Program-made: the position numbers and the translations under genes | Shown here: in pieces, positions 17,285-63,612 of the stretch | How the letters are laid out: each line of letters begins with the position of its first letter | How positions within the stretch are numbered: position 1 is the stretch's first letter | From: Mimachlamys varia | Lineage: Eukaryota > Mollusca > Bivalvia > Pectinida > Pectinidae | Length of the DNA: 64,000 nt | Assembly: GCA_947623455.1 (NCBI GenBank) | Contig: OX392543.1 | Span: forward strand, 21,512,757 to 21,576,756 | Reading direction: 5' to 3' | The notes under the pieces: model-generated | Seen by the model: the letters and a program-made list of their open reading frames with translations, nothing else | Database searches by the model: none | Told to the model about the DNA's origin: nothing

Positions 17285-17415
17285 TCAAGCCCGTGCCTAG
17301 CATCACTGACGAGTCCTAGAAGGACGAAACAGCTGTATGGTGCAGTTTAATTCATTATTAAACTCGACTGTATCTTATTTTAAATTAAAAAGGTGTTATT
17401 CTCATGAGTGCGTGT
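17285..17415 (+). repeat. HHR-380 derivative (single unit fragment) with ribozyme
   Basis: A short copy: CCGTGCCTAGCATCAC, ribozyme, then GTGCAGTTTAATTCATTATT and CTCGACTGTATC. It shares the CTCGACTGTATC variant with the copy at 58045-58145, so the two form a subfamily. The large middle part of the 380-bp unit is absent. Confidence 0.8.
17300..17343 (+). ncRNA. Type-I hammerhead ribozyme, all core bases intact
   Basis: Stem I 5' strand GCATCA, conserved CTGACGA, stem II GTCCT/AGGAC with AGA loop, conserved GAAA, then CAGCTGTA and the stem I 3' strand TGGTGC. Stem I pairs GCATCA with TGGTGC (one G-U). The predicted cleavage site follows GTA at 17337. Stem III is ACAG/CTGT with no loop, so it would have to pair between two molecules, as proposed for other hammerheads with very short stem III. 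Every residue required by the hammerhead consensus is present. Cleavage activity is inferred. Confidence 0.88.
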
Positions 17416-17809
17416 CGTTTATCCTATTCACTGATATCAGGTGATAACATTTTCCCAATCAACAAGTTTAATGTATGCATAATGATTTTATTACGTTTGT
17501 CTCCAGGTAACACATATTTCATATCATCTTGTGTAGGAATTAGGATATCTTCCTTCTAAAGGACTGGCTTAGAATCTTGACCAGAACAAGATCCGACGCG
17601 ATTATGCAAACATATTCTACAACCAAGAGGTAAATTTCGCAATCCCGTTTCACCACTTCAACCTGGATGTTGGTAGATTGATACAAAAAATGTAGAATAT
17701 ATTCAACAGTCGATCAACGGGTATTTCGGCGGAACAAAATGGTATTTTAATATCGAAATAGTAAGCATATACGCTAAAATCTCGATAATAAGCCTGAATC
17801 AAAAATATG

Positions 17810-18325
17810 CCGGTCTTGAAAATAAGCCTTGGATTTCTTGCAGTCAAATATATCTTGAAAATATGCCGGCTTTTAAAATAGACCGTACTTGTAAGTAAGC
17901 CTTGAATTCTTTGCAGTGAAATATATCTAAAAAATAAGCCGATTATTTATATTTGTCATTTTGTCACTAATCATAACCCTGCGTTGTTTTTTTATCATTG
18001 AGACCCATTTGTTAACACTTAAAGGATAAATGACTTCGAAAATAAGGCGTCCTTGAAAATAGGCCTGCCTTCGAAAATAAGCCTGGGATTGGTTACCAAA
18101 ACAAGAAAATAAGGCGTCCTTGAAAATAGGCCTGCCTTCGAAAATAAGCCTGGGATTGGTTACCAAAACAAGAAAATAAGGCGTCCTTGAAAATAGGCCT
18201 GCCTTCGAAAATAAGCCTGGGATTGGTTACCAAAACAAGAAAATAAGGCGTCCTTGAAAATAGGCCTGCCTTCGAAAATAAGCCTGGGATTGGTTAACAA
18301 AAAACGAAAATAAGCCGCGGCTTAT
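17810..18325. repeat. 67-bp tandem repeat (AAATAAGCC family)
   Basis: From about 18035 four nearly identical 67-bp units contain GCCTGGGATTGGTTACCAAA and AAATAAGGCGTCCTTGAAAA; GCCTGGGATT starts at 18081 and 18148, fixing the period. Diverged AAATAAGCCTTGGATTTC pieces precede it. The block closes with AAATAAGCCGCGGCTTATTA, a palindrome. Confidence 0.88.
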
Positions 18326-20410
18326 TATCAATAATTTAGGGTATTCATTTTGTGCTAGTTGTATCAATTGATTTTCGGTTATACTATTACCTTGACGTAA
18401 TTATTTACGACGCCAAATATCACATATGGTGGCGACTTTGACCGAATAAGTTCTAAACATTTTAAATCCTAGCTATTTGTTTTCATTAACTTCTTAGTAT
18501 CAAGAAAAAAATGCCGTTTCCGAACTTAAGGTCACATAGTGCGGGTATGTTAAATAAAACTACTTTCCAATATGGCTGTTCCATATGAGACGCAAGTATT
18601 TGGCACGTGAACACTCTAGTGTGTGATGATGATTGAGTATGTTTTTGCTGCTTAGAATCGTGATCTTAATATCGAGTGTAAATTTATCAATACAAAAGCT
18701 TTGGTTCCTTTCCAGTACTAGCTCCCGAGCGTAACTCAACGAGTTTTTCATAAGTCAGTGGTGCCTTTTGAACCTTAATGATCGAAAGAAATGTACTGGA
18801 TCTGGCGAGAAGCCGTTTTCCGTATCGTAATCACTATCTTATTGTCGTCAGGGAATGTCTTCATTTACTGCTTATAGTACTAAATGCGTAGACAATAAAG
18901 CCGTTTTGAATTCCTCGGGAATACTAAATGTATCATCAGAAGTCGATATTTCTTTACCAAAGTCACGAACAAACCGCCGAAACAGCGCCAAGCGTCATAC
19001 ACGCAATATCCTCTGTTGTGTTTTGACGTCACTTGAGCTATTTCCTGATCTGGGTTCAAAATGTTGAAATATTTGTTACCTTAAGATGTAAATATTGGAT
19101 CAAGATATTTGTGAATATATACTAACTATTCAGATATCAAGCCAAATTAGATAAAATAACAGTAGCAATTTGAATACGAAGAGCTTACTGTTAAATTTCT
19201 ATTTTAAGTTAAAGATAAGAAAATATTTTAGCATGCATAATGGGTAATGACCCATGAAGCTAACAGAGCTTTGAATGCCCTGGCACATGTTATTACCATG
19301 TCGTAATTATTCCATACCAAATCATCCCTTTGGAACAATTGGAGTGAGGGGCGTACATTAATTCAGGGTATTGAATCCAATGTTTTACGCCGCGGTCATC
19401 CAACATAGGCACTTTACAGTGGCATACATACATGTATATATCGTAATTAGATACAATCAAGTGATCAAATCCAATCTTGTTCGTCAATTGCAACGCAATA
19501 TAGGCCCAGGTGGATGTTTTTGTGTCATATATAGGGTTAATTTAGAATTAAGGTCGTTAAGTGATTCGGGTTCATTTAAACATCACGTGACCTATACCCA
19601 TTGCGATAACAGTTCTTTGTCGTCTGCTTTAGTCTGTGCGACGGGGAATGCTATAATTCAATTTGAACATTGGATAGCTTTCAAAATCGTTCTTCATTCT
19701 TGTATGATCGATTGTGGATGCTTAAAAACTGAAATCGTTTTGGTTGAAGATGTTCGCTAGACCAATAACCTCGAAGAAGAGCTTTTTCTATCTTCAATGG
19801 ATGACGTCAGAGAGATATATGAAGGCAATTCAGTTTCATGATGGTTATTTATGTTTGTATGTTACAAAGCCTGTCGGGGATGTCAATGCGGTAAGTATGG
19901 GATTCACCTGTCCTATAAACAAACAATTCGCGAATTGAGCAATTAGAGAATGACATGACAATACTCTTAACTATTCCTACAAATATAAAGTTAGGGTGCG
20001 TTCGTGGTGTAATTGATGCCATTTTCGTTCAACACTAACTTATTATCACATTTTAGATAATTTTCAGCTTAAGTGTAAAAGAAAAACTTATTCGAGTAGT
20101 TCATTTTGTAAAATGTCAAAATAATTTGAAATTCTCAAAACAAAGAAGATAAGGTTACATTAAAAAAAATTAGAACAGCTTTTGAAAATGTAATAACTAT
20201 CATAACGACATCAATGGTTGAGTTTATTTCTTAATGAACAGCACTATTATGGTCTATAGCAGCAACAATACATAAAGATAGTGGTACAATTGATATACTT
20301 CAGGTACAGTAGGGATAAACATTGTATGATAAACTGATTAAAATCATATCTTGATCTCCGCGCCGTTCCGTAAACTTCTCTCTGCTGCGTTAAGATCTGA
20401 GAAAATCTCT
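18326..20410. other. Unassigned DNA
   Basis: About 2 kb with no recognised repeat. The longest frame is 129 codons (19371-19760, plus strand). It has no membrane pattern or motif that I recognise and no visible splice context, so it is not called as a gene. A 70-codon frame starting near 18855 is likewise unassigned. Confidence 0.45.
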
Positions 20411-20640
20411 CGGGGGTCATATCCCGATGACCTTTGGCATTACTACTGTTAGCATCTTGACAGTGATTTTTTTAGACGACAAAGCTTGCATAATGGCATT
20501 TGTCCGTTTAGCCATTTCGTCACCAAAACGTTCATGTGGAATAATGTGAAGAAATGACTTGCTGCAAGATGACAAGTCATTGGAAAATTATTTTAGTGTT
20601 AAGTAAATAGGCGACAAAGGTCATCTGGACGTGACCTCTT
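20411..20640. repeat. Inverted-repeat element, possible MITE
   Basis: GGGGTCATATCCCGATGACC followed by TTTG at the left is largely complementary to CAAAGGTCATCTGGACGTGA followed by CCTC at 20614-20638 on the right. The arms are about 24 bp with several mismatches. No target duplication found. Confidence 0.5.
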
Positions 20641-20644
20641 ATGG

Positions 20645-22273
20645 AATGTTGTAAGATCCTTGTAAAAATCAGATTGCATGGTATGAATATATTTTACCAC
20701 GTTTTGTATTCGCACAAAGCCATTTCTTTAGATTGAAAAAAAGAAATAATACAAAGTCGGGACATTTATGTTGAACATTATAAAAATAACTGATAAAAAT
20801 AAATCCAAATTTTATCAAAAGTGTTGTCATTACATAAATATCCTACACTTACATAGTACTCAGTAATTTTAGAGACACTTTCCTGTTAAACCCGTTTGCT
20901 AAAGTTCTACGCTGTTGCATTTTAAATCTGTTTTGTTGTAAAATGGGTGAATTATTGACTTTTTCGAAGGATATATTTAGGAGCGATAAAACTGAGAAAA
21001 AAAAAATCCCGTCAAGTGCCCCATAATATGAGAGATTTCACGTTGCACCATATTGACACGTGCTCGATCAAGGCAAGTCTCGGTCCAGACGCGTTTGAAC
21101 GTGATTTTAACCATTTCTGAAAGTCATCCATCTCCTTTATGAATATGATAGCTCGCTAAAGTGTAAACACTATGATACATATTTTTTTATCTTATCGTGC
21201 ATCAACAGCGGTTCGTGATCGCTATTTATGTCCCAGTGTATTCCCTATATAGCATTTTATAGATTATTTAATTGTGTGAATACCCCATGGAATCTATGGC
21301 ACGCATGCTTGTATCGATAAATGTCAAATACGTTGCTAAATTAGTGAAGATGCTTGTCTGAATTAAGTGCAATATGTATGCTCATTGATGCTCGTAAAGG
21401 ACAATGAAGTATATGATTACGTTCGAAGTGCACAAATAACATCCATTATTCATATCCTGTTACCAATGTGTCTTGTTTTGGTTTAATGTAATGATTTGTG
21501 TAGTAAAATCGCACCGAAAATCTTGCAATGCAAAGATAACTACAGGCGGATTAACGAATTCTTGAATTCATTTATAGTTCATTTCGTCGATTTGGACTTA
21601 ACGTTACTACAACAGCGAAAGTCATATGAAAGCATACGCTTTACGACTGAAAAAAGGAGTACGAGAGAAAGAAAAGAAAAATCCCTGGGAAATGATTGTG
21701 AAAACAGAGAAATATGGTTCCTTCATTGCCCAAAAGCAGAATAGTCGGGGTTTTTTTTCTTTAAAAGATCCAACGTTTGGCCTTAGGGACAACAGACTAA
21801 GTCCTTCGAAATCTATCACCAGAAGATGCAGCATTATTTTCCAGATTTACCAGTACTTTATCGTGATGATTATTTGGAGATTTAAAAAAAGCCTTCATAA
21901 GACATAGGACTTCTGAAATGTCAAATATCCTTTTAGATTTATTAAACGTTCATAACATAAACAACAGTAGTATCGTCCTGTATATACCAACTTGATTCTT
22001 TGATATACAAATGAGAACATATTTCAGTTTACCACAGGCTGAATATTTCCCTTTAACACAAATACATATTAATGTAAAAAAAAACTTCAAATAAAAGGCA
22101 AAGATTTGATTTACCGTCTGTTCTTAGAAATGATAAAGCACCTCTGTTTGAATGTTAAAGAAGTGATACTTACATGTATTTCATTCATAAATATACTGTA
22201 TATACCCTGTGGTCCCTTCAATGGTTAAGTTTAGAAATTTCAATGTGGTAATTGATATATTGATTATACAATA
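20645..22273. other. Unassigned DNA
   Basis: Overlapping frames of 70-93 codons on both strands near 21500-21900 lack recognisable domains. No named repeat found. Confidence 0.45.
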
Positions 22274-22652: not shown

Positions 22653-22743
22653 CTAAATGGCCAAAACACAGCTGAACTTACTTGACGTACGACTGAACAT
22701 ACTTCAACAAACGATCAATACATAGACTACTGTAAAGTATAAA

Positions 22744-22983: not shown

Positions 22984-24055
22984 TCGGAACAATAGTGATT
23001 ATTACAAAACAATCTCACAACAATAGCTTCTCGGGAGGTTGATTACTACAAAACATTCTCACAACAATAGCTTCTCGGAAGGTTGATTATTACAAAACAA
23101 AGTCACGACAATAGCTTCTCGTGAGGTTGATAATTACAAAACAAACTCACGACAATAGCTTCTCGGGAGGTTGATTACTACAAAACATTCTCACAACAAT
23201 AGCTTCTCGTGAGGTTGATAATTACAAAACAAACTCACGACAATAGCTTCTCGTGAGGTTGATAATTACAAAACAAACTCACGACAATAGCTTCTCGTGA
23301 GGTTGATAATTACAAAACAATCTCACGACAATAGCTTCTCGGGAGTTTGATTATTACAAAACAATCTCACGACAATAGCTTCTCGTGAGGTTGATAATTA
23401 CAAAACAATCTCACGACAATAGCTTCTCGGGAGTTTGATTATTACAAAACAAACTCACGACAATAGCTTCTCGTGAGGTTGATAATTACAAAACAAACTC
23501 ACGACAATAGCTTCTCGTGAGGTTGATAATTACAAAACAAACTCACGACAATAGCTTCTCGGGAGTTTGATTATTACAAAACAATCTCACGACAATAGCT
23601 TCTCGGGAACTTGATTATTACAAAACAATCTCACGACAATAGCTTCTCGGGAACTTGATTATTACAAAACAAACTCACGACAATAGCTTCTCGGGAGCTT
23701 GATTATTACAAAACAAACCCACGACAGTAGCGTCTCGGGAGGTTGATTATTACAAAACAAACTCACAACAATAGCTTCTCGGGGCTTGATTATTACAAAA
23801 CAAACTCACGACAATTGCTTCTCGGGAGCTTGATTATTACAAAACAAACTCACGACAATAGCTTTTCGTGAGGTTGATTATTACAAAACAAACTCACAAC
23901 AATAGCTTCTCGGGGCTTGATTATTGCAAAACAAACTCACAACAATTGCTTCTCGGGAGCTGATTATTACAAAACAAACTCACGACAATAGCTCCTTGAG
24001 AGCTTGCTTATTACAAAACAAACTCACAACAATGGCTTCTCGGGAGCTTGATATG
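22984..24055. repeat. 44-bp minisatellite, about 24 units
   Basis: The unit is GACAATAGCTTCTCGTGAGG plus TTGATAATTACAAAACAAACTCAC (given in two parts here). Variants GGGAGG, GTGAGG, GGGAGT and GGGAGC are intermixed, and the 3' third has deletions such as CTCGGGGCTTG. The whole unit repeats, so there are no unique spacers. Confidence 0.93.
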
Positions 24056-25221: not shown

Positions 25222-25590
25222 ATGTTTAATGATAAGGGGTGGCAGACTCTGCTGGTGGATGTTTTAGTCCCCGCGGTTAGCTGAACCCACAGTTTATCTA
25301 ATTTGAGAAGTGGCACTGTGCATAATATGCACATTTTCATAGTAGACGATTTTAATTTTTACAGAACTATTTTAATTTTGCTTTTAAATTCATAGCCTAA
25401 AGGGATGTTACGCGCCTTACCCTTCTACTTCTACATAAGTTTAGAAATTTTGGATTCCAACCATCACTGAAGAGGCCTATGAGGACGAAACAGCTGTATA
25501 GTGCAGTTTTATTCATTTTTCGGAATACTATATCTATTACTAAATCAAAAAGGTGCAGCATATGTGTGTGTCACGTCATCTTTACACACC
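25222..25590 (+). repeat. HHR-380, complete single unit
   Basis: Runs from ATGATAAGGGGTGGCAGACT through CAGTTTATCTAATTTGAGAA, TTCATAGCCTAAAGGGATGT, TTACCCTTCTACTTCTACAT and GAAATTTTGGATTCCAACCA to the ribozyme, then GTGCAGTTTTATTCATTTTT, ATCTATTACTAAATC, AAGGTGCAGCATATGTGTGT and CACGTCATCTTT. This is one full monomer of about 370 bp, with the 3' end CACGTCATCTTT shared by the other copies. Confidence 0.88.
25461..25504 (+). ncRNA. Hammerhead ribozyme, core kept, stems weakened
   Basis: CATCA, CTGAAGA, GGCCTATGAGGAC, GAAA, CAGCTGTA, then TAGTGC. Core bases agree with the consensus; stem II has one mismatched pair and stem I is reduced to two or three pairs. It may be slow or inactive. Confidence 0.7.
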
Positions 25591-25880: not shown

Positions 25881-26295
25881 AGTCTTTTTACCGGAATTTC
25901 ATACAAATTATTACAATCTGCCAGAATCCAAACCGGCAAATATCAAATCTGATCGTCAAATGAAGTTTTGAAATGCTTCCATACATCTCTTATTTAATGC
26001 ATGCAGCATCCGATACACCAGGTTTTGGGTTTTGTTGAGTGCAAATGTAACTGAAAGAAAAACCTGCACCTCGAGACAAAGTCACGGTATTGGAAATGTT
26101 TTAAAATTCAAACTCCAGACCTTCCCATTATAGCGAGCTACTCGGACAGCCAGCTTAAATCATAAGCAGTAAGTGCATGTAGCCCTGCTATGTTGATAAA
26201 CATGTTCGATACCTTGATGAATGCACTTCAAAACAACTCACTTGAAGAATCGTTTAGGTTACGTAACTTTTTCTCTGGAAACATGAAAAAGTATG

Positions 26296-26388
26296 CAAAA
26301 GGTGACGTAACACACACACATGTGCTGCACCTTTTGAATTTAGTAATATATACAATATGCCGAGAAAATGAATTACCCTGCATCATAA
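26296..26388 (-). repeat. HHR-380 3' fragment starting near the ribozyme cleavage site
   Basis: On the minus strand the copy begins TATGATGCAGGGTAATTCAT and ends CAGCACATGTGTGTGTGTTA then CGTCACCTTT. The full family has CAGCTGTA immediately before TGATGCAG, so this copy starts within three bases of the predicted cleavage position and runs to the standard 3' end. Confidence 0.75.
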
Positions 26389-26639
26389 AGCTAAGAAACA
26401 AAGGTCTATTGTTTAAACAAATATTTCTGTCATATAATCCATTTCATGTGTTATGTATCACATGAATGTTTCCCAAGTACGTTTATTTGGCATGGAAACA
26501 CAGAGAAACACTTGATTAGCAAACTGATACCAAAATTATTTCTATCACAATACCCTGTGTTATTTCACTCTCAGACCATTGTATAAACGTGTTGACTGTT
26601 GGATACATATATGTTATATACCCTTAGTGGAATATGACC

Positions 26640-31677: not shown

Positions 31678-31953
31678 TACAAAATAATCACAAATAATCT
31701 CCGATTATGTGATTGTATTCACTAAAAATAACTATTATTTAATCATTTAAAAATATGAGGCACTAGTTTCTGAGTGAAAAAATGTGTTAAGGTACAAGTA
31801 AAAACTACTCAGTGAAAAGTAAAACGTCTCTTGATGTACATAGGTATTTGCTCAGTTGAAACAATCTGTATATAAGGATCACGTAATACACACATATGCT
31901 GCACCTTTTAAATTTAGTAATGGATACAGTATGCCGAAAAAATGAATAAAACT

Positions 31954-31997
31954 GCATCATACAGCTGTTTCGTCCTCCTAGGACTCTTCGGTGATGC
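31954..31997 (-). ncRNA. Hammerhead ribozyme with U4 substitution
   Basis: On the minus strand: GCATCA, CCGAAGA, GTCCTAGGAGGAC, GAAA, CAGCTGTA, TGATGC. All stems are perfect, with GCATCA/TGATGC fully paired, but the core CTGA is CCGA. The change of the conserved U to C is expected to abolish or greatly slow cleavage. Confidence 0.8.
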
Positions 31998-32332
31998 TAG
32001 GGGCCACAAGGCAGGAATCCAAAATTTTCTAAACTGATATAGAAGCAGAAGGATCGGGGGCGTAAAACCCCTTAAATTTATGAATTTAGAAGTAAAATTA
32101 AACTAGTTCAATATAATTTCAAATCCTGTACTACGAAAATGTGTATATTATGTACCGTGCCATTACTCCTATGAGATTAACTGTGGCTATGGAGGCTCCA
32201 GCAAACCTCGGTGACTAAAAAATCCACCAGCAGAGTCTGCCACCCCCTATCATAAAGATCACGTAACACACACATATGCTGCACCTCTTATATTTAGTTA
32301 TAGAAACAGTATGCCGAAAAAATGAGTTAAAC

Positions 32333-32377
32333 TTCATTATATAGCCGTTTCGTCCTCCTAGGACTTTTCAGTGATGC
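32333..32377 (-). ncRNA. Hammerhead ribozyme with G8 substitution
   Basis: On the minus strand: GCATCA, CTGAAAA, GTCCTAGGAGGAC, GAAA, CGGCTATA. The catalytic G8 position is A, and stem III is altered to ACGG/CTAT. Expected to be inactive. Confidence 0.75.
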
Positions 32378-32958
32378 TATAGGGGCAAAAAGGCAGGAAT
32401 CCAAAATTTCTAAACTAATGTAGAAACAGAAGGGTCAGGTGCGTAAAACCCCTTTAATTTATGAATTAAGAAGTAAAATTAAACTAGTTATGTATAATTC
32501 CAAATCGTTTACTACGAAAATGTGTATATCATGTACCGTGCCACTACTCCAATGAGATTAACTGTGGCTATGGAGGCTCCAGCAAACATCGGGGACTAAA
32601 ACATCACCAGTAGAGTCTGCCACCCCCTATCATAAAGATGAAGTAACACACACGTATGCTGCAACTCTTAAATTTAGGAATAGATACAGTATGCCGAAAA
32701 AAATGAATTAAACTGCATCATGCATCATATGTGTTACCATTCGTTCAGTACAAAACAGCCTTTCTCTAGATATATGTTAATATTTGCTCCGTATAAAACA
32801 ACCAGTCTATAAATATCAGGTAGTATTTTCACAGAAATTTACAACATGTCTCTTGATATGTGTTAAATGATTTAACAAACTATCCCTAGAAAACAACATG
32901 TTTTTAAATATGTGTTAGCATTCTTTCAGTAACAAATAAATTGTCGCTAAATATGTGT

Positions 32959-33208
32959 ATATATAAATATATACTTTATTTATTTTACAACAATTATGAA
33001 ACAAGTTATCCAACTTATATTAATTACCCTTGTTGGCCCGGATGTTTGCGCGCGAGGAGTTCTTATTGTGGGACGAAACCGGAGTATCCGGAGAAAACCC
33101 ACGTGGTCGGGCAGGTGACCCCATACTTTTCCACGTCCAGTCGGGGAATCGAACCCCGGCCGCCTTGGTGAAAGGCAAGTGCGCTATCCAATGCACCACC
33201 CGACTACC
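32959..33208 (-). mobile_element. SINE-A, full-length, with 12-bp target duplication
   Basis: The tRNA head lies at the right (minus strand: GGGTAGTCGGGTGGTGCATT, B box GGGGTTCGATTCCCC), then ACCTGCCCGACCACGTGGGT, the central domain TCTCCGGATACTCCGGTTTC, and the tail with ATAAGTTGGATAACTTGTTT and AAATAAATAAAG. CTAAATATGTGT flanks both sides (32947-32958 and 33209-33220), a target-site duplication of 12 bp. Frames of 60-76 codons inside are not genes. Confidence 0.92.
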
Positions 33209-37130: not shown

Positions 37131-37389
37131 GTAATCCATAGGGTAGTCGGGTGGTGCAGTGGATAGCGCACTTGCCTTTCACTAAGGCGGCCGGGGTTCG
37201 ATTCCCCGACCGGACGTGAAAAGGTTTTGGGTCACCTGCCCGACCACGTGGGTTTTCTCCGGGTACTCCGGTTTCCTCCCACAATAAGACCCCTCGCGCG
37301 CTAACATCCGGGCCAACAAGAGTGATTTATATAAGTTGGATAACTTGTTTCATAATTGTTGTAAAATAAATAAAATTTATATATTATAT
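37131..37389 (+). mobile_element. SINE-A, full-length, with 17-bp target duplication
   Basis: Head GGGTAGTCGGGTGGTGCAGT, A box TGGTGCAGTGG, B box GGGGTTCGATTCCCC, then GGTCACCTGCCCGACCACGT, the central domain TCTCCGGGTACTCCGGTTTC and tail AAGTTGGATAACTTGTTTCA with AAATAAATAAAATTTATATA. ATTCTCAGAATGAATCA occurs at 37114-37130 and again at 37390-37406. The near-intact sequence and exact duplication indicate a young insertion. The 82-codon frame on the opposite strand is not a gene. Confidence 0.93.
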
Positions 37390-46480: not shown

Positions 46481-47811
46481 GAATCGTCAACCACTCAATT
46501 TCACAGACAAGGCATGATGAAGTGGTAAATTCGGGTAGTAAAATAAATTAGAATTGAATAGAAGTACATTTATTTTTATATTATTTTTGTCAGGGTCAAA
46601 ACCTTTCGTTCAGAGAAAACCACAGACAAATGTTTAACAAAGCAGTCAAATAATCTCCATATTATTGTCGTGTATTTCAAGATAAATATGTATTGCAAAA
46701 AATCAATTGATGCAAATGGTAATGATGTAAGCAAGTTTAAATCAGCTATTTCATCCTTATCACACAGTATACCATACTTCTATCGCTGTTTGTTTGATGT
46801 CACAAAATACGCAACAGATATGCAAACAGGTAATTTGCTGACAGAAACCATGAATAAATGGATTGACGAATTAGAGAATTGGGTGTTCAATCACAAACAC
46901 CGTTTAGAGATTGACTTAAACAATACTTTCATTTCAAGTACCCCCTTATCGACCACACGCGTCCGATACTTTGTACATGTATATACATAGCCTTAACTAT
47001 CGTTGTTACCGACGATTACCGATTTGTGATTATCAAAACGGTCAAGCCGCAAGCATTGTGATGGAGCACACCCGTGGCACGGCTACTTAGTGACGGGAAA
47101 CTGTGTTCCGGCATTTGTTGTGCCTTAGGGGCGATCTGTCTACAGAAACTAATAATAAAGGAATTTCTGCTTGTGAATCTTTCCGGAGCGTTTTGGAGTC
47201 GTAATAAAATCTGATAGCAAAGTCTACATGCAGACAGTTCTGAAATGTGCTATGATTTTGAGAAATCTGAAAAACAGCAAGGAAATATTGCAAGGTGAGC
47301 AAAGAACAAACAAACAAACAGAAAGAAATGTTCTGATTAAAATGAATCATTTTGCTACAAACGTATCAAAATTATGTTCAGACGCCTGCTTGCATTAAGA
47401 ACCTGTCATTTTCCATAGGGTGCAAGTATTATGTAGAACAGAACAAATATCAAAGAATACGAAAGTTGATAGTGTCTTAAAAAAAAATATTGAAAACAAA
47501 AACCAAAAAATCTTTGAAGTGCCTTTCCTGATTAATTACTTAACATTTTCCGAGAAATAAAAATAGAATATAAGAGCAAAATGAAATAAGCAGAATATAT
47601 CGCTTGGATCAAAAGAATTTTATAAAACATGTAAATCGTTTGAAATTTTACGTCATCGTAACATCTAACATCATATAAAGACGAGCTCCCGGGGGACAAG
47701 ATCGTGAAAACAGACAAGGTACAGCAAGAGGGACAAATAAAAGACAGAACAAACGTATCATAAGTATCGCACTCCTTTTAGTTTCAGACAACAAAGCAAA
47801 AAATGATTACG
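46481..47811. other. Unassigned DNA
   Basis: Holds one 106-codon frame, listed separately. No named repeat recognised. Confidence 0.5.
46670..46990 (+). other. Reading frame of 106 codons, possible exon
   Basis: The translation includes KSIDANGNDVSKFKSAISSL and TETMNKWIDELENWVFNHKH, with a composition more protein-like (balanced charges, amphipathic helix pattern with W, E, L, K) than other frames of this size. No family is recognised. There is no neighbouring exon or repeat. It could be an exon of an unknown gene, a decayed retrogene or chance. Confidence 0.2.
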
Positions 47812-48819
47812 GTGTATGTGTGTCGTAGACGGGGTATGTTGTGTATGTGTGTCGTAGACAAGGTATGTTGGTGTATGTGTGTCGTAGACAGGGTATGTTG
47901 GTGTATGTGTGTCGTAGACAGGGTATGTTGGTGTATGTGTGTCGTAGACAGGGTATGTTGGTGTATGTGTGTCTTTGACAAGGTATGTTGGTGTATGTGT
48001 GTCGTAGACAAGGTATGTTGGTGTATGTGTGCCGTAGACAAGGTATGTTGGTGTATGTGTGTCGTAGACAAGGTATGTTGGTGTATGTGTGTCGTAGACA
48101 AGGTATGTTGGTGTATGTGTGCCGTAGACAAGGTATGTTGGTGTATGTGTGTCGTAGACAAGGTATGTTGGTGTATGTGTGCCGTAGATAAGATAATTAT
48201 GTTTGTGTATGTGTGTCGTAGACGGGGTATGTTGGCGTATGTGTGTCATAGACGGGGTATGTTGTGGTATGTGTGCCGTTGACAAGGTATGTTGGTGTAT
48301 GTGTGCCGTTGACAAGGTATGTTGGTGTATGTGTGTCGTAGACAAGGTATGTTGGTGTATGTGTGTCGTAGACAAGGTATGTTGGTGTATGTGTGTCGTA
48401 GACAAGGTATGTTGGTGTATGTGTGTCGTAGACAAGGTATGTTGGTGTATGTGTGTCGTAGACAGGGTATGTAGGTATATGTGTGTCGTAGACAAGGTAT
48501 GTTGGAGTATGTGTGCCGTAGACATGGTGTGTTGGTGTATGTGTGCCGTAGACAAGATATGTTGGTGTATGTGTGTCGTAGACAAGGTATGTTGGTGTAT
48601 GTGTGCCGTAGACATGGTATGTTGGTGTATGTGTGCCGTAGACAAGGTATGTTGGCGTATATGTGTCGTCAACATGGTATGTTGGTGTATGTGTATCGTA
48701 GACAAGGGGGGTATATGTGCCGTAGACATGGTATGTTGGTGTATGTGAGTCGTAGACAGGATATGTTGGTGTATGTGAGTCGTAGATATGGTATGTTGGT
48801 GTCTGTGTGTCAAATACAT
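47758..48819 (-). other. Array-derived frame of 353 codons
   Basis: Reads as repeats of THIHQHTLST, changing phase within the array to THTPTYLVYD. It begins and ends within or beside the minisatellite, has no unique domain, and competing frames are open on both strands (plus-strand frames give MCVVDKVCWC-like and VYVCRRQGML-like repeats). It follows from a stop-free 30-bp unit and is not called a gene. Confidence 0.1.
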
Positions 48820-49300
48820 GGTATGTTGGCGTAAGTGTGGCGTTTACAGGGTATTTTGATGTATGTGTACCGTACACATGGTATGTTGATGAATGTGTGG
48901 CGTAGACAAGGTATGTTGGTGTATATGAGCCGTAGACAAGGTATGTTGGTGTATGTGTGGCATAGACAGGTGTGTTGATATATATATGTATCGTAGACAT
49001 GGTTTGTTGGCGTATGTGTGCCGTAGATAAGGTATTTAGGGGTATGAGTGTCGTAGACAATATGTTGGTGTATGTGTGCCGAAGACAAGATATGTTGGTG
49101 TATGTGTGCCGTAGACACGGTATGTTGTGTATGGGTGCCGTAGACAAAGTATGTTGGCGCATGTGTGTTGTAGATATAATATGTTGGTGTATGCGTGGCG
49201 TGTACAGGGTATGTTGGTGTAGGTTTGTCGCAGACACGGTATGTTTGGGAATGCGTGCTGTAGAAGGATATATTGGAGTATGTGTGCCGTAGATGTGAAG
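47812..49300. repeat. 30-bp minisatellite, about 49 units
   Basis: The unit is GTGTATGTGTGTCGTAGACA plus AGGTATGTTG. The first ~30 units are very uniform; from about 48660 to the right end they become diverged. Alternatives GTGTGTCG/GTGTGCCG and ACAAGG/ACAGGG/ACATGG are mixed. Confidence 0.95.
48197..49237 (-). other. Array-derived frame of 346 codons
   Basis: Second overlapping minus-strand frame through the same array, mainly THTPTYLVYD repeats. The same reasoning applies. Confidence 0.1.
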
Positions 49301-54659: not shown

Positions 54660-54740
54660 ATTGTGAAAGATGACCTAACATACACATATGCTGCTCATTT
54701 AAATTAAGAAATAGAGTATGCTGAGAAAATGAATTAAACT

Positions 54741-54784
54741 GCATCATACAGATGTTTCGTACTCCTAAGACTCTTCAGTGATGC
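54741..54784 (-). ncRNA. Hammerhead ribozyme, core kept, stem II damaged
   Basis: On the minus strand: GCATCA, CTGAAGA, GTCTTAGGAGTAC, GAAA, CATCTGTA, TGATGC. Core bases agree with the consensus and stem I is perfect, but stem II has a C-T mismatch and stem III (ACAT/CTGT) is broken. Confidence 0.72.
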
Positions 54785-55125
54785 TAGGGGCCAAAATGTG
54801 GGAATCCAAAATTTCTTAATTAAGTAGAAGCAGACGGATTAGGTGCGTAAAACCACTTTAATTTATGAATTTAGAAGTACAGTTGAACTAGTTCTTTATC
54901 ATTTCAAATCATATACTTCGAAAGCGTGTATATTATGTACCGTGTCATTGCTCAAATGAGATAACTGTGGCTAAGGAGGCTCCAGCAAACCTCGGGGAGT
55001 AACAAAATCCACCAGCAGAGTCTACCATCCCCTATCCTGAAAGATCACGTAATACACACATATGTGCTGCACCTTTTTAAATTTAGTAAGAAATAGATAT
55101 AGTATGACGAAAAATTAATTAAACT

Positions 55126-55169
55126 GCATCATACAGCTGTTTCGTCCTCCTAGGACTCGTCAACGATGC
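55126..55169 (-). ncRNA. Hammerhead ribozyme with C3 substitution
   Basis: On the minus strand: GCATCG, TTGACGA, GTCCTAGGAGGAC, GAAA, CAGCTGTA, TGATGC. Stems II and III are as in the intact copy, but the conserved C3 is T. Expected to be inactive. Confidence 0.75.
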
Positions 55170-55212
55170 AAGTGGAAAAAAACTAGAAACCTACAATTTC
55201 TAAACTAATGTA

Positions 55213-56204
55213 GAAGAATAGAAAACAAATATTACAAATCATTTGGTAAAACAAACATATTTAAATAAACAACATTTTGGTTTTTATTCAAGTTGGATTA
55301 TACACCTCGTGATTCGATATCATTGGTAAAATATTTAACTCAGACCACAAGCCTTGGTAACTGCGATTTATATGTTTTCCATCATTTTTACAACCTCAAA
55401 ATACATAAATGTATCTTCATCTTTGTTATTTGAATATTCGCTGATTATAATTTTAAGAATCACATTCGAACTGCTAGTATTCAGTTCACTTTGCGGTTAT
55501 AAAAATTAAAAAAAAAAAACTTCGCTCAAGAAAACCATACACAAGGGGGGGGGGGAGATGATTGCATAGTCAGCTGAGAGAGGTAAGGAACAAATTAGAT
55601 GTTCCAGTAAGCTCAACCAGCCTCTTTCCTGCAAAGGGCGGGGTATGGCATGATACGCGTTAATGATGATAAATACTTAAGACAACATGTGACTGATATC
55701 GATCCTTCATTTGATTGAATTTGACAAAGAAAACTTGAATTGAGTACAACTACCATATGTAGGCCTTTGAGACAAGTCATCGAAATGTTACAATGGAAAA
55801 CCTATCTAGCGTTAAATTACATCTTTTAAGCAAGAGCAGACGATTTATTTATTTTGTACTTCTCCTGTCAGTGTAGCCAACAAAAAAAACCAATCCCGGA
55901 CATAAAGTTCTACGAAACATAACAATTTATTTCCCATTTGATATAACACAATCCTCTAGATCTTGTCGTAAACCAAAAGCCGGTGTCGCCAATCTATTAC
56001 GAGTTTTCGCGACGGTAATTACCCGACATTCGTGTTATACAATGAACGTGAATCTGGTGATGACAGGGAGTGGTGATGTACTCTTCGACGGTTTAAATGA
56101 CTTTGTTTGCTAGATTTCTTTGTCTTTTCGCGAAGATCAGCGATCCAACGCCATTTGATATTCTCCAGAAATACAATTTTCTAATTCAATTTTAAAAATC
56201 AGAG
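55213..56204. other. Unassigned DNA with a G11 run
   Basis: Eleven G residues at 55545-55555. No gene or named repeat recognised. Confidence 0.5.
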
Positions 56205-56459: not shown

Positions 56460-56540
56460 ATGGAAGTTGTGAAAGATGACGTATCACACACAAAGGCTTC
56501 ACTTTTTGAATTTAGTAAAACAAAGCGGAAACAAATATCA
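56460..56540 (-). repeat. HHR-380 3' fragment, no ribozyme
   Basis: GTGAAAGATGACGTATCACA, CACTTTTTGAATTTAGTAAA. It starts at the standard 3' end of the family and stops before the ribozyme, lying between two Rep1 copies. Confidence 0.6.
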
Positions 56541-57820: not shown

Positions 57821-57909
57821 TCTGTTACAATTGGGTGATCTTGGAATTTATTGAATTTTAAGGCTAGTGCATCTCCATATATATCCAGCATTTTGACATT
57901 GCTTTCGGC

Positions 57910-58145
57910 CGGTGTTGTATAGTGCAGTTTAATTTATTTTCGGCATACTGTATATATTACTATATTCAAAAGGTGCAGCATGTGTGGGTTTCGTCATCTT
58001 TGTTTTCTCCATTTGCCAAAAAGGCTTTAAGGCTTGACCTTTTAAGGTCGTTGCTTCGCATCTCTGACGAGTTAAGATGGGACAAAACAGCTGTATGATG
58101 CAGTTGAATTCATTATTTTGCTCGACTGTATCTAAAAGTGATGTT
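57910..58145 (+). repeat. HHR-380 fragments: 3' piece and diverged ribozyme unit
   Basis: The first piece begins TTGTATAGTGCAGTTTAATT, about four bases before the predicted cleavage site, and ends GGGTTTCGTCATCTTTG, the family 3' end. The second piece (about 58045-58145) has a ribozyme and GTATGATGCAGTTGAATTCA then CTCGACTGTATC, the subfamily of the copy at 17285. Confidence 0.75.
58058..58101 (+). ncRNA. Hammerhead ribozyme, degraded
   Basis: GCATCT, CTGACGA, GTTAAGATGGGAC, AAAA in place of GAAA, CAGCTGTA, TGATGC. The 5' core is intact and stem I is nearly paired, but G12 is A and stem II is weak. Expected to be inactive. Confidence 0.68.
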
Positions 58146-58194
58146 TTGTACAATCTTTTTCATAAAGACGCCTGAAACTTGCTGGAAGATGAGA

Positions 58195-58240
58195 CTAGGA
58201 CCCGCATTCATGAAACCGTTCTCGTGATATATTAAGCGAA
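58195..58240. repeat. MITE-F tip
   Basis: GACCCGCATTCATGAAACCG with TTCTCGTG, the terminal repeat only. Confidence 0.55.
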
Positions 58241-58264
58241 GTTTGCATCTATGTCTTAGATTTA

Positions 58265-58690
58265 GTGAAAACCAGTGTCACCTTCCTGACAACGTGGTTT
58301 TTTCCCAGCAACTCCGGTTTATAAATTTTTAAGATTAATATATTAAGTTAAAAACTTGTTTCATAATTGTTTATATTTTGTAATTTTTTAGGTTCATATT
58401 TCTGACATTGGTTAGTCTTATGTCCTAATACCATTTTCGATATTTCAATTTGACGTAAGATCCAAAATGGAGAGGAGAGGGATAAAAAGCAAAAAAGAAG
58501 TTAGTGCCTTTCTACTTAATGTATATCAAAGTTTATTGTAAATCATGTTTATGTAGTTATAATGTGTAGATGATAATGCACTTGTCTTTCACCAAGGCTG
58601 TTTGACTCGATTCCCCGATCAGTCAAGAAAAGTCTTAGAAGCATAGGTCATCAGTCCGAATAAATGGATTTTTCATAAGATCATCTACTT
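58265..58690 (+). repeat. SINE-A fragments, diverged
   Basis: 58270-58385 contains GTGTCACCTTCCTGACAACG, TGGTTTTTTCCCAGCAACTC and AAAACTTGTTTCATAATTGT (SINE-A 3' half). 58550-58640 contains GATGATAATGCACTTGTCTT, TCACCAAGGCTG and GACTCGATTCCCCGATC (SINE-A head). Order is reversed, so these are separate old copies. Confidence 0.6.
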
Positions 58691-59344
58691 AGATTCGTTC
58701 TCATCTATCCTTTAAATTGAACACGTATGGAACGCATATTCTCCAAATAAATAATACATATATACATGTACATGTACTACCGATGTAATTGAAACTAATG
58801 TAATTATACGTTAATAAAACTGTAGGAAAGAATGCCCCTGAGCGCTAAATTATACCTGCGCGTTAAAACTAACACAGCGAAAATATAACGTAACTGTACG
58901 TCAACCATACATGCCATTGATGTCATAAAGTGCTTTTATACTTGGGTAGTAAGCCTGACTCGCGGTATTCACGGACTTCACGTTTCACGGCGATTCTGCA
59001 TGTGTTTACGACCTCGGTGCTGTTCTGGTACATGGTCACACAGATTACAAAATGTCACCAGGATAATTATCAGCAATGATCGATACCTATGTCGTACACA
59101 AACACACAGTGAACGTGACCTTGTATCTACCTTGGAGATTCAACAAGAGAGCTAAGCAATCATAAAAGTGACACGATTTTGAGTTGTTGATTTTTGCAAA
59201 TACTGAATTTTGTTTATATCTTTGCAATGTACGTTTTTGCAAATGGTTATCATGAATAATTGCTACTGTTGTGAATGCTTATATTTGTTGAAGCGTTTCT
59301 GTAATTACGAAAACGTTTTCACTCATTTGTCAGGAATCAACCTT
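58691..59344. other. Unassigned DNA
   Basis: No gene or named repeat recognised. Confidence 0.5.
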
Positions 59345-59402
59345 TGGTGAGGTCAATATCGTTTTATGCAGACCTGGTAGAATCAAATATTGACCGAGGG
59401 CA
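59345..59402. repeat. FB4 half copy
   Basis: GGTGAGGTCAATATCGTTTT, GCAGACCTGGTAGAATCAAA, TATTGACCGAGGGC match one FB4 arm. Confidence 0.7.
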
Positions 59403-59404
59403 AA

Positions 59405-59820
59405 GTATTACGATTTTGTTCTCTAGCCCACACAACAACAACAACCCATGTTGAAAATCAATCGGGTCTGGCGTGGATATTGCGATATTTTTGTTGCAAC
59501 ATTCGAGTGAGGTGGCATCGTGAAATATACAACTTGAAGTACGGTCCCGCTACAAAACAAACACAGCGCATCTCCAGCACACACACACACACACACACAC
59601 AGACTATGCACATAGTTGTCAAATAAAATAAAAGTAAATAAAAGAAGTAGATTGTGCCTAATAAAGCAGATCCTTCAAATGTCTTAAAGAATATATTATT
59701 AATGCATTATGTCATGGAGACAATAGAAATGTGTGTCAATTATATAATATTGTATTGTTTATATACATTGTTTATGTATGTACTGTAAAATGCTTTAAAT
59801 GACTTCTTTTCATAAAAATA
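59405..59820 (+). mobile_element. SINE-D, 5'-truncated copy
   Basis: CCCACACAACAACAACAACC, GTGAGGTGGCATCGTGAAAT, CAAACACAGCGCATCTCCAG, an (AC)n run at 59579-59601, and a tail ATGTATGTACTGTAAAATGC. Matches 49790-50110 without the tRNA-like head. Confidence 0.75.
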
Positions 59821-59934
59821 TATGCTATATTGAACGTTGAATATCTTATTCTTGATTTTATTTAAGAAATGGACTTGATATATACACAGGTTGTTAAAAT
59901 AGATAGTAAAGTTTATATCAATCTTCGTTCTTTT

Positions 59935-60010
59935 CATATATTGATCTTAGTCTAATCGATTTTGAGTTCGGATTATGCTTTTGTTGATGCTTCAGTATCC
60001 TTTTTAATCT
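59935..60010 (+). repeat. Rep1 terminal fragment
   Basis: CATATATTGATCTTAGTCTA, ATCGATTTTGAGTTCGGATT, ATGCTTTTGTTGATGCTTCA. Confidence 0.72.
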
Positions 60011-60169
60011 GCAAGATATGTCAAAAGAGAGTAAATAATCGTGATTTAAAGCAATCGTATTTGTTGTTCGTTTTTAGAAAATGCAGATTTTCATTTTTCA
60101 TCAGCTTTAAGATGTGCTGCTTTAAGTAAGATGTTTGGCTAGGTTCATAAGACCTATTGCAGGAGGCGT

Positions 60170-60270
60170 ATATAAACATATCGCAGCCTTCCTAATACGC
60201 AAGCACGCCGGGGTGGCCGTCCTTAAATATGATCCTAGGTGTTAATAGGACGATGAACCTATCAAAACTA
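60170..60270 (+). repeat. SINE-like 3' fragment
   Basis: GCAGCCTTCCTAATACGCAA, CCGTCCTTAAATATGATCCT, AGGTGTTAATAGGACGATGA and AACTAAAACC resemble the 3' half of SINE-B (TTAAATGAC-, GTTAATAGGACG-, AAACC tail). Confidence 0.5.
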
Positions 60271-60666
60271 AAACCAAGCTAGTCATAATATCATAAAGGG
60301 TCAAGTTTGGACTAACTGATACTGACCATGTCTTACGTACGTACCACCTTTACGCGGTGTAACCGATGCTCTTTGATTCGATGTACTTTTAAGAAGTATC
60401 TGCTGTTTCTACTGTAGGATTCTAGATCAATAGGTCCCTGTCGTTTTGTTAGTACTATTTTAATTCTTCGGTGTTTCACTAGGCAGGTCTAATTCGACCG
60501 TCGTAACAATAACGAGACAAAGCGGGTAGTTATTTTCAAATGGCTAGAATGTCACATTCTAATGTCGTTACCGATTGAATTGTCCTCGGGGTGTCCTCAT
60601 GACCACCGAGAACTGGTTTCGTATGCATTAGTTGTCGCAACGAACAAAGTCCCTTTGAAAAACATC
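60271..60666. other. Unassigned DNA
   Basis: No gene or named repeat recognised. Confidence 0.5.
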
Positions 60667-60667
60667 T

Positions 60668-60952
60668 GGATCCGGATTCATGAAACTGTTTCAATGCTCA
60701 ATAATGTTTTTTGTGATCAAACTAATTTCGTATTCAGTTATAAATGAATAAAAACATTCTCATTTGTCTAATGACAATGATTTGGGAAAAACCTGAAGGA
60801 TCTTTCAATGATTTGGAGATAATATTGAAGAAGCATAAAGCCGAATACTGCTTTCAATGTTTTACGGTTTGAGTTGCGTCAAAGAAGCAGATTTGGTCAC
60901 AGAACCCATGCTACATGTATAGCATGATAACGGTTTCGTCAAAATGGAGTCG
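60668..60952. mobile_element. MITE-F, diverged copy
   Basis: Left GGATCCGGATTCATGAAACT with GTTTCAATGCTC; right, in plus-strand reading, CACAGAACCCATGCTACATG, TATAGCATGATAACGGTTTC. About 285 bp, with interior unlike the 13442 copy (contains TTTGGGAAAAACCTGAAGGA, as does the copy at 34813 in part). Confidence 0.65.
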
Positions 60953-61170
60953 GATTTTTGACACTTACAATACTTAAATGCAAGCTTATTTGAAAATTTT
61001 AGGCAATCAGAAAATCAAATCTGCGGTACGCATATACAAGTTTACTTTTTTTTTTTTAAAATATGCGTTCTAAAATGGTTATTTCTATGAATGGTTTTTT
61101 CTTGTCAATTGTATGGAATATAATATTTACATTAGTTAAGAAATGTTGGACTCCCACCTTTTGGCCACAA

Positions 61171-61214
61171 GCATCACTAAAAAATCCTAGGAGGACGAAA
61201 CAGCTATATGGTGC
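61171..61214 (+). ncRNA. Hammerhead ribozyme, core broken
   Basis: GCATCA, CTAAAAA instead of CTGANGA, ATCCTAGGAGGAC, GAAA, CAGCTATA, TGGTGC. G5 and G8 are lost; stems remain. Inactive by prediction. Confidence 0.72.
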
Positions 61215-61549
61215 AGTTTAATTCATTTTTCTGCGTACTGTCTCTAATACCAAATTTAAAAGGTGCAGCACATGTGTGTGTTACGTCATCTTTAATGATA
61301 GGGGGTGGCAGACTCTGCTTGTGGATGTTTTAGTCCCCGAGGTTTGCTGTAGCCTCCATAGCCACAGTTAATCTCATTTGAGTAGTGGCACGGTACACAA
61401 TATAGACATTTTTGTAGTACACTATTTGAAAGTATACAGAATTAATTGAATTTTACTTCTAAATTCATAAATTATAGGGGTTTTATGCAACTGACCCTTC
61501 TGCTTCTACATAAATTTAGAAATTTTGGATTCCCACCTTTTGGCCCCTA

Positions 61550-61593
61550 GAATCACTGAAGAGTCCAAGGAAGACAAAACAGCTGTGTGGTGG
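61550..61593 (+). ncRNA. Hammerhead ribozyme with G12 substitution
   Basis: GAATCA, CTGAAGA, GTCCAAGGAAGAC, AAAA instead of GAAA, CAGCTGTG, TGGTGG. G12 is A and the cleavage-site A17 is G. Inactive by prediction. Confidence 0.72.
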
Positions 61594-61672
61594 AGTTTAA
61601 TTAATTTTTTGGCATACTGTATCTATTAACAAATTTAAAGTGCAGCACACATGTGTGTTACGTCATCTTTGA

Positions 61673-62594
61673 AAGTGCTTCCTTGCGAGTAAACCTTTTT
61701 TTGTGTTTTTTTCTAAATCTCGTTTAATAATAACTGTAATTATACACTTTTTAGCTAATACTTTCATTTGTACTGTTGATGGCTATTGTTCTTGCATATT
61801 GACCTTGCCAACGTTTGTATGCAAATACGAATCTGAGGACAATGAAGAAAAAAACACCATTGTATGAAAACGACCCTTTAACAACTGGTACAGACTGAGG
61901 TACTTTAGTAGACGCCGCCAATTTCTAATTTTACGACATCATTAAAGAAACGGAATGTTTGCATTCTTCTGGTTGAGTGTATTTTACGACTTTTGATAAA
62001 AAACGGATTCCGCTAATTGTGTAGCAGACACGAAATGTCAGAAACAGAATTACAGTCTTTTGTCTGAGTTTGGTACAATTGTATACTTCTCAATTGGCTT
62101 CAATGATTTGCAACAACATCACACAGTACATCTGATCAAGTATGAAGCTATTTGAAGTTAAGTGAACAGCAATGCGTGCTTAGCGGTATTTAAACTACCT
62201 ATAGTCATAAACTAGCAATTCTGTTTTGTCGACAGTTTTCCTGGGGAAACCGCCATAACAAGATGGCGAAACTTGTATTGAATCAACATTGTTTATTTTT
62301 GAATGTCCATTTATCTATTACAATTATAAAGCTTTGTTAAATCTTCCATTCTATTCAATTTACATCTTACCTATTTTGCTAGTTATCATGATTTTATCTT
62401 GCTGTGCAATTAATTTCGGTAACTTTTGTTTTTATATGTGAAAGAACTTAAAAAACAGTTTTATAGAAAATAAACCCTTCTTCAATCCGCTTTAGATTAA
62501 CATAATGGATAATGTTGTTTAGTTGTAACGTTTTAAGGTACTTTCTGATCAATGAATAATAAAATATACAATCGCAGTTTATGTGTACACCGTA
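61673..62594. other. Unassigned DNA
   Basis: No gene or named repeat recognised. Confidence 0.5.
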
Positions 62595-62596
62595 GG

Positions 62597-62830
62597 CAGC
62601 ATTCAGTTGTTTGTTTTTGTTTACGCCCTATTATATTTAACTAATTTACAGCTGTGTTCAGAAAAGCACCTGCCATGTGGGGAAGCCGGAGTTCCTGAAG
62701 AAAACATCGACCAACGGCCAGCACTTGGCGCACACCTCACGTTGGTCTCAAACCCGCGACCAAAAGGTAAATGGTTACTAGTAGCAGATTGCCAATTTCC
62801 TTAAACACCTGGTAACCGCGGCCCCGAAGA
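62597..62830 (-). mobile_element. SINE-B, diverged copy
   Basis: In plus-strand reading: GTTTGTTTTTGTTTACGCCC, GGGGAAGCCGGAGTTCCTGA, AGAAAACATCGACCAACGGC, CAGCACTTGGCGCA, the reversed B box GGTCTCAAACCC, then AGCAGATTGCCAATTTCCTT and CTGGTAACCGCGG near the head. The 73-codon frame is not a gene. Confidence 0.75.
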
Positions 62831-63302
62831 CCAAAAATGGAACTCTTCAGTGTGCAATGTTTTTCTGCAGTGGGATATGGAACCTTAAGCTACGAAAAAC
62901 TTAACGAATCTGAATAAAATTTGGATATTTGCTTACAGAATAACTCAAATAGAAAATATAGCAAGTATGATACCATTTTAAAATGATAGCCATCAAATAT
63001 TAGATTTGATAAAGATATAAATGCACATATTTACAAAAGAAGAATATATTTTAAAAATCTAACTCAGACATCAAAAACCTGAAATTGTTAAGCAGCATTG
63101 CCCGGTGCTCCATATGTTGTTAGCCTTCCTACTTACGCCGGCGTATTTAACGATATCTGTTAACACATGGTTATCTCTGTAACACAGTATTTTATCACGT
63201 ATTTTCATATCTGTTATCGCTGCATGTTTTACATGTTGCATCTGTCGTTATGAAACGCATGCATGCATAATGTGAATATGAACATTCTTATTTGTTGAAA
63301 TA
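62831..63302. other. Unassigned DNA
   Basis: No gene or named repeat recognised. Confidence 0.5.
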
Positions 63303-63612
63303 GGCACGCTTTATCTCATTTGAGAAGTGGCATGGTACATAATATATACATTTACGTAGTACACGATTTGAAATTATACAGAAGTAGTTCAAATTTATTT
63401 TTAAATTCATAAATTAAAGGGGCTTTACGTACCTTACCCTTCTGCTCCTACATTAGTTTAGACATTTTTGAATCCAATCTTTTGGCCCCTAGCATCACTG
63501 ACGAGTCCCAGAAGGACGAAACAGCTGTACGAAATAGTTTAATTATTTTTTTTCGGCATACTGTATCTATTACTAAATTAAAAATGTGCAGCATATGTGT
63601 GTTACATCTTCC
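63303..63612 (+). repeat. HHR-380, 5'-truncated single unit
   Basis: Starts within the unit (ATCTCATTTGAGAAGTGGCA), continues TTAAAGGGGCTTTACGTACC, TTACCCTTCTGCTCCTACAT, ribozyme, TTCGGCATACTGTATCTATT and ends GCATATGTGTGTTACATCTT. Confidence 0.87.
63492..63535 (+). ncRNA. Hammerhead ribozyme, core intact, stem I broken
   Basis: GCATCA, CTGACGA, GTCCCAGAAGGAC, GAAA, CAGCTGTA, CGAAAT. All core residues are canonical and stem II has four pairs, but the 3' strand of stem I no longer pairs with GCATCA, so it should not cleave in cis. Confidence 0.75.

What the first reader, a model, noticed from the sequence alone, without database searches (positions are those of the whole stretch)
17285..63612. 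A ~380-bp repeat family carrying type-I hammerhead ribozymes, with at least nine ribozyme motifs in one 64-kb window
Ribozyme motifs at 17300, 25461, 31954(-), 32333(-), 54741(-), 55126(-), 58058, 61171, 61550 and 63492 share the order stem I / CUGANGA / stem II / GAAA / CAGCUGUA / stem I. They sit in a collinear ~380-bp unit that occurs singly and head-to-tail. Hammerheads in tandem ~170-400-nt units are known from animal retrozymes and from Penelope-like element LTRs. This unit has no coding capacity, so it would be a non-autonomous, circular- or linear-RNA-propagated element. The particular family may be undescribed.
Basis: partly seen in the sequence, partly recalled or inferred. Interest (0 to 1): 0.93.

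Follow-up and report, generated by a model that had tools for sequence, protein, structure and literature searches.

The report
Hammerhead retrozyme with fixed copying entry
An unnamed, likely animal genome holds more than ten thousand sites of a predicted self-cutting RNA motif, which in the copies examined usually sits in a short non-coding repeat; most of the copies examined end at one point about 86 bases past the predicted cut, so RNA circles are likely copied into DNA by a Penelope-type enzyme that would start inside the circle.

Summary
Ten hammerhead-like sites lie in the window; eight sit in a 381-bp unit (family A), two in a related family B. Four of 10 keep an intact core; Rfam sees 4, all under its cut-off. 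Genome-wide the core pattern has 10,479 sites, 0 in the control, and at least 35 Rfam matches over cut-off. It is a new member of a known kind, the metazoan non-LTR retrozyme. New is the anatomy of insertion: copies end at a fixed point ~86 nt past the predicted cut (53 of 81 segments; 15 of 20 in a ribozyme-blind set), begin all round the circle, and run from 0.19 to ~2.8 laps. Laps within one copy repeat private variants (89 against 28.7 expected). In the same genome Penelope-like copies end 65-85 nt past their own hammerhead cut, and a published Penelope starts reverse transcription inside its RNA, 85-92 nt past the cut. A Penelope-type RT lapping a circle from a fixed internal entry explains this; no donor Penelope sharing the tail was found. 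Side finding: 45-bp hammerhead-only arrays, 757 junctions.

The parts
17146..17425 (+). Family B element; hammerhead 17300-17343, predicted cut after 17337, right end ~88 nt later. The only motif of the window with core and all stems intact.
   Evidence: (33.3 bits)
25226..25584 (+). Family A, ~1 lap; hammerhead 25461-25504 (core intact, stems I and II damaged)
26292..26392 (-). Family A, 5'-truncated copy holding little more than the tail
31872..32720 (-). Family A, 2.2 laps; hammerheads 31954-31997 (U4 to C) and 32334-32377 (G8 to A)
31784..31875 (.). Right copy of a probable ~92-bp target-site duplication of the element above (left copy ~32721-32812); decayed
   Evidence: anchored score 10.1, shuffled 99% 9.4 in 130-base flanks; not above it in 1200-base flanks
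54666..55216 (-). Family A, 1.45 laps; hammerheads 55126-55169 (C3 to U) and 54741-54784 (core intact)
56472..56518 (-). Family A tail fragment
57916..58004 (+). Family A tail fragment just before the family B motif
58058..58132 (+). Family B-like hammerhead 58058-58101 (G12 to A) and part of its tail
61128..61670 (+). Family A, 1.44 laps; hammerheads 61171-61214 and 61550-61593 (both cores broken)
63300..63615 (+). Family A, 0.83 lap; hammerhead 63492-63535 (core intact, stem I damaged)

Best explanation
The repeat is a non-coding retrozyme-type mobile element whose transcripts are predicted to be cut by their hammerhead and likely closed into ~381-nt RNA circles, which a Penelope-like reverse transcriptase would likely enter at one fixed internal site ~86 nt past the cut and read for a fraction of a lap up to almost three laps. 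Shown from sequence: the hammerhead motif, the unit, the fixed right end, the scattered left ends, lengths of 0.19 to ~2.8 laps, and private variants repeated between laps. Inferred: self-cleavage, circularisation (by a host ligase, as proposed from in vitro work on mussel and axolotl retrozyme RNA), priming by nicked target DNA, and the identity of the RT. A circle has no 3' end, so an RT that starts internally, as shown in vitro for a Penelope-like element of Anolis, is the natural partner.
For: Right end fixed: 53 of 81 family A segments end at unit position 82-94, commonest 86 (55 of 83 before two duplicates are dropped). In a set chosen without the ribozyme 15 of 20 end at position 79-97, 1 runs off the fetched piece, 4 end elsewhere. 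In 13 of 20 fetched family B loci the motif after which copies diverge (by eye) ends 82-88 nt past the cut; one of the 13, L113, seems to run on. Left ends lie all round the circle. No 5' flank next to an insertion is shared among 54 segments apart from one duplicated locus. Laps of one element share deviations 89 times against 28.7 expected; identity 0.914 within against 0.875 between, over 24 elements. Penelope ends in the same genome: one family's copy 80-85 nt past its minimal-hammerhead cut (L072), another 65-79 nt in 10 of 16 ends looked at. PMC11167929 (parts 1-2 of 4): RT start 111-118 nt and hammerhead cut 26 nt into the ORF, so 85-92 nt apart. Penelope RT and GIY-YIG over Pfam cut-offs here. 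PMC3846280 (passages): pLTR sequences sufficed for integration of a foreign gene in trans.
Against: The A and B tails show no similarity to three sampled Penelope tails (p 0.25-0.96) and the A unit none to Penelope proteins (best E 1.7). No Penelope protein match lies within the ~1.5-kb flanks of 68 fetched hammerhead loci or in the window. Flanks are not clearly AT-richer than background (0.64-0.67 against 0.638), whereas the Anolis enzyme prefers AT-rich DNA. Duplications pass in only 5 of 53 elements (22-106 bp), and in only 2 of 53 with 1200-base flanks, while rotifer Penelopes give 8-10 bp or none. A hairpin at the entry site is not better than shuffles. The three multi-lap window copies and L015, L033, L057 and L060 show no clear within-element excess. 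A fixed site would fall in the 65-92 nt range by chance about 1 time in 14 (my estimate, 28 of 381 positions). The predicted circle is only mildly over-structured (z -1.6), and its best fold does not hold the ribozyme in its active form. 28 of 81 segments do not end at the fixed point.
Confidence: 0.6

Rival explanations
1. Retrozyme mobilised by a LINE-type RT by ordinary target-primed copying of a linear RNA that ends at the fixed site.
For: Fixed right end and variable left truncation are LINE-like; bases just after the junction are mildly A-rich (A in 21-25 of 53 at each of the next five positions).
Against: A linear RNA ending 86 nt past the cut would be split by its own ribozyme, and copies would shorten over generations; multi-lap copies with shared private variants and no 5'-flank carry-over fit a circle better. 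No poly-A or microsatellite tail at the right ends printed (by eye).
Confidence: 0.2
2. Plain satellite or DNA-level amplification in which the ribozyme is a passenger.
For: The 45-bp hammerhead arrays show block duplication (L003), typical of unequal exchange; the ribozyme of dead copies is only slightly better kept than its flanks (3.4% against 4.6 and 5.4% substitutions).
Against: Family A copies are dispersed over contigs C1-C19 (together) with a fixed end and at most ~2.8 laps among those examined; target-site duplications in some.
Confidence: 0.07
3. A viroid-like RNA that replicates RNA-to-RNA, with genomic copies as occasional by-products of reverse transcription.
For: Published mussel circle clones did not match database entries exactly (PMC7229834).
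Against: More than ten thousand genomic sites suggest DNA copies are the main reservoir; nothing here tests RNA replication.
Confidence: 0.08

Closest known systems
Metazoan non-LTR retrozymes, Mytilus galloprovincialis (Cervera and de la Pena 2020, PMC7229834, parts 1-4 of 6 read)
   Same: Type-I hammerhead, ~350-390 bp repeats, thousands of copies, two similar ribozyme families, co-existing with Penelope-like elements
   Different: Here the insertion end is mapped to a fixed site 86-88 nt past the cut and set beside the Penelope spacing; 45-bp hammerhead-only arrays.
Penelope-like element PAc of Anolis (Frangieh 2024, PMC11167929, parts 1-2 of 4 read)
   Same: Hammerhead followed 85-92 nt later by the point where RT starts; ends of genomic copies mark that point
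   Different: PAc codes for RT and endonuclease, and the paper does not mention circles or retrozymes; this element codes for nothing
Plant LTR retrozymes (passages in PMC7761336)
   Same: Non-autonomous, ribozyme-delimited RNA circle
   Different: Type III hammerhead, LTRs with PBS and PPT, 4-bp duplications, ~700-bp units

Membership tests
Metazoan non-LTR retrozyme | Type-I hammerhead ribozyme | tested here: met
   (sequence and model; activity untested)
Metazoan non-LTR retrozyme | Tandem unit of 150-450 bp, from single copies to multimers | tested here: met
   period 381; 72 to 849 bp in 51 segments; L064 ~1051 bp, 2.8 laps, when its two BLAST pieces are taken together
Metazoan non-LTR retrozyme | Low GC and no coding capacity | tested here: met
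   GC 38.3%, longest stop-free run 63 codons on three laps
Metazoan non-LTR retrozyme | Duplications longer than 4 bp, when present | tested here: met
   5 of 53 over shuffled 99%, 22-106 bp; 2 of 53 with 1200-base flanks
Metazoan non-LTR retrozyme | No LTR, PBS or PPT | not tested
   no dedicated search was made
Metazoan non-LTR retrozyme | Helix I-II loop interactions | not tested
   not examined
Metazoan non-LTR retrozyme | Highly self-paired circle | tested here: inconclusive
   circular MFE z -1.6 against 60 shuffles
Metazoan non-LTR retrozyme | Expressed as linear and circular RNA; self-cleaves in vitro | not testable with these tools
   no RNA data
Penelope-like element | RT and GIY-YIG ORF | tested here: not met
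   no Penelope match at 68 hammerhead loci or in the window; longest stop-free run of the unit 63 codons
Penelope-like element | Tail shared with a Penelope pLTR | tested here: inconclusive
   not met for families A and B against three Penelope tails; further Penelope lineages listed were not reached
Plant LTR retrozyme | Type-III hammerhead | tested here: not met
   the hammerhead hits are RF00163, type I

The most novel reading that the evidence does not exclude
Animal retrozymes are Penelope parasites: a hammerhead plus an ~86-nt tail is a portable entry module that lets a Penelope RT, which needs no RNA 3' end, climb onto an RNA circle at one point and lap it. The same genome shows the module on autonomous Penelopes, on Penelope-derived 1.2-1.4 kb tandem units, on 381- and ~350-bp retrozymes, and shrunk to 45-bp hammerhead-only arrays whose RNA would fall apart into 45-nt ribozyme circles.
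Probability: 0.4. Interest if true: 0.82.

Novelty: new member of a known kind. Interest (0 to 1): 0.62.

Why it matters
Which enzyme copies animal retrozymes, and how an RNA circle without an end is primed, is left open in the 2020 paper (LINE or Penelope proposed). A fixed entry point at the Penelope distance turns that into a direct test with one purified enzyme and one circular RNA.

Tried and rejected
Penelope as carrier of the unit: no Penelope match beside 68 fetched hammerhead loci (several of them overlapping pieces of one array) or in the window. Rfam found no hammerhead in six fetched Penelope or family-B-upstream pieces; a pairing scan then found a minimal one in L072 and L074, and motifs in L071 and L073 were read by eye. 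Shared tail sequence with Penelopes: rejected for three tails. Entry-site hairpin: not above shuffles. AT-rich target: not seen. Short duplications in 20-base flanks: none above shuffles; long ones showed only with wider flanks. Strong constraint on the ribozyme among dead copies: only a small effect. Exact pattern in viral contigs: none. A 22-nt match of the unit in L138 was taken as chance. Of the flank matches I dropped L015/L064 (both 'flanks' lie inside the unit) and two pairs that do not reach the junction.

Full report
Observation. The window is part of an unnamed 975-Mb genome in 71 contigs, likely a mollusc by size and contig number (my guess, untested). Rfam reports four, all under its cut-off; the window's copies are decayed, and 4 of 10 keep the core. 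Genome-wide the core pattern gives 5,095 + 5,384 sites with up to two mismatches and none for the reversed pattern; array units are among them. Of 40 Rfam matches listed, 35 are over the cut-off (only 73 of 133,848 candidates were scored). In 20 units picked by a stretch without the ribozyme, 11 have a hammerhead hit at E<=0.1, one over the cut-off.

Two families. Family A has a 381-bp unit; family B (17300 and 58058 in the window) shares the ribozyme and tail but differs upstream. Paired family B hits ~350 bp apart suggest a unit of about that size (my reading of coordinates). The A and B ribozymes differ at 3 of 44 positions: the free N7, loop II, and one stem-I base that turns a U-A pair into U-G. 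In 29 loci chosen without regard to the ribozyme it has 3.4% substitutions, its core 2.4%, its flanks 4.6 and 5.4%, so dead copies decay nearly evenly from a master with an intact ribozyme.

Anatomy of insertion. I rotated the unit so that position 1 follows the predicted cut. BLAST gave 83 segments in 59 loci and the window, the arrays L003 and L019 left out. Dropping L039 (the window itself) and L059 (a duplicate of L045), 53 of 81 end at position 82-94, commonest 86 (17 segments). The other 28 include family B copies, pieces cut by a locus end, and decayed or broken copies; I did not sort them further. In the ribozyme-blind set of 20, 15 end at unit position 460-478 (79-97), 1 runs off the piece, 4 end elsewhere. 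Left ends lie all round the circle. Two of the 53 are pieces of elements that BLAST split (L015, L064), so the shortest whole one is 72 bp, 0.19 lap, and the longest is L064, ~2.8 laps. Of 54 segments 11 hold two or more ribozymes. Five of 53 have a direct repeat that starts at the right end and scores over the shuffled 99% level in 130-base flanks: 97 (L026), 106 (L005), 22 (L068), 92 (the window's 31872 copy) and 38 bp (L051); L037 has a gapped one of ~76 bp. With 1200-base flanks only L026 and L005 pass. The rest show none.

One circle, several laps. In elements with more than one lap I compared positions read twice. Both laps carry the same deviation from the family 89 times, 28.7 expected from column frequencies. 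L064, with three laps compared pairwise, gives 19 of the 89, and L045 and L059 are one duplicated locus counted twice. In 9 of 24 elements at most two of ~65-75 other elements match better than the second lap does. Several do not show it: the three window elements, L015, L033, L057 and L060, as expected if mutations after insertion dominate, or if some laps come otherwise. Adjacent 5' flanks are not shared between insertions.

The Penelope spacing. A GIY-YIG search gave 56 matches. The L072/L074 family has a minimal hammerhead; the L072 copy ends 80-85 nt past the cut, L074 runs on. In the L073 family 16 ends were looked at (14 fetched, two in L073): 10 leave the run-on sequence 65-79 nt past the cut, 2 run on, 4 pieces lack the motif. 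Six fetched pieces of the L072 family lacked the motif and were not used. The L073, L071 and L137 motifs carry an extra base before stem II (by eye), so their activity is uncertain. Frangieh et al. place the hammerhead cut 26 nt and the RT start 111-118 nt into the ORF, 85-92 nt apart by my subtraction; the words retrozyme and circular do not occur in their text. That A, B and Penelopes fall in one range is suggestive, not proof.

Penelope-derived tandems. Two non-autonomous units share the hammerhead and tail of a Penelope family: 1410 bp, three copies 99.9% identical with an RT fragment (L115), and 1181 bp, seven listed copies from C7:47448632 (L116). The L116 array ends 73 nt past the cut; L115 runs on past 85 nt. 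They show that a hammerhead-plus-tail module can be borrowed.

Hammerhead-only arrays. At 757 places (<=2 mismatches, control 0) one ribozyme follows another at 45 bp; the first 100 listed fall in about 23 loci (my count), the widest over 3 kb. L003 has 19 units, 15 with intact cores; L019 has 16 recognised, 15 intact. L019 and L027 sit inside family B elements; L003 has an A-like tail. Block duplication in L003 points to unequal exchange at the DNA level.

Novelty. Searches of the held papers listed no paper that, from what I read of it, maps the RT entry of animal retrozymes or reports hammerhead-only 45-bp arrays; most hits were seen as listings only. Minimal hammerheads in tandem are published for Penelopes (PMC7761336 passages), and Penelope has been proposed as the mobiliser before (PMC11722881 passages). 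The element is a new member of a known kind; the mapped entry is the contribution.

Noticed in passing
G000 contig ends; L071 (C17:46500-55000): Penelope-like elements with RT and GIY-YIG domains (Pfam) stacked head to tail (4972-bp period, 99.9% identical): 28 of 56 GIY-YIG matches lie within 100 kb of 15 ends of contigs C1-C19 (0.22 expected), 26 with the 5' end facing outward. The telomeric Penelopes described in PMC3846280 (passages) lack the endonuclease. A second ORF resembles an SGNH hydrolase by eye (recalled motif); Pfam finds nothing at E<=0.01.
   Followed up: partly
L115, L116: Penelope-derived tandem units of 1410 and 1181 bp that keep the Penelope hammerhead and tail
   Followed up: partly
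C8:49483805-49486786 and ~22 other loci of the first 100 places listed: 45-bp arrays made only of hammerheads
   Followed up: partly
window 8047-8167: Long, nearly perfect inverted repeat that triggers several microRNA models on both strands
   Followed up: no
window 33134-33204 (-) and 37146-37216 (+): Weak tRNA-model hits (24.6 and 26.8 bits), possibly tRNA-derived SINEs
   Followed up: no
window 5092-6185, 12120-13366, 22996-24052, 47811-49293: Minisatellites of 27, 31, 44 and 30 bp with 24-50 copies
   Followed up: no
L073 (C5:48155500-48163800): Two nearly identical Penelope copies head to head (99.9%)
   Followed up: no
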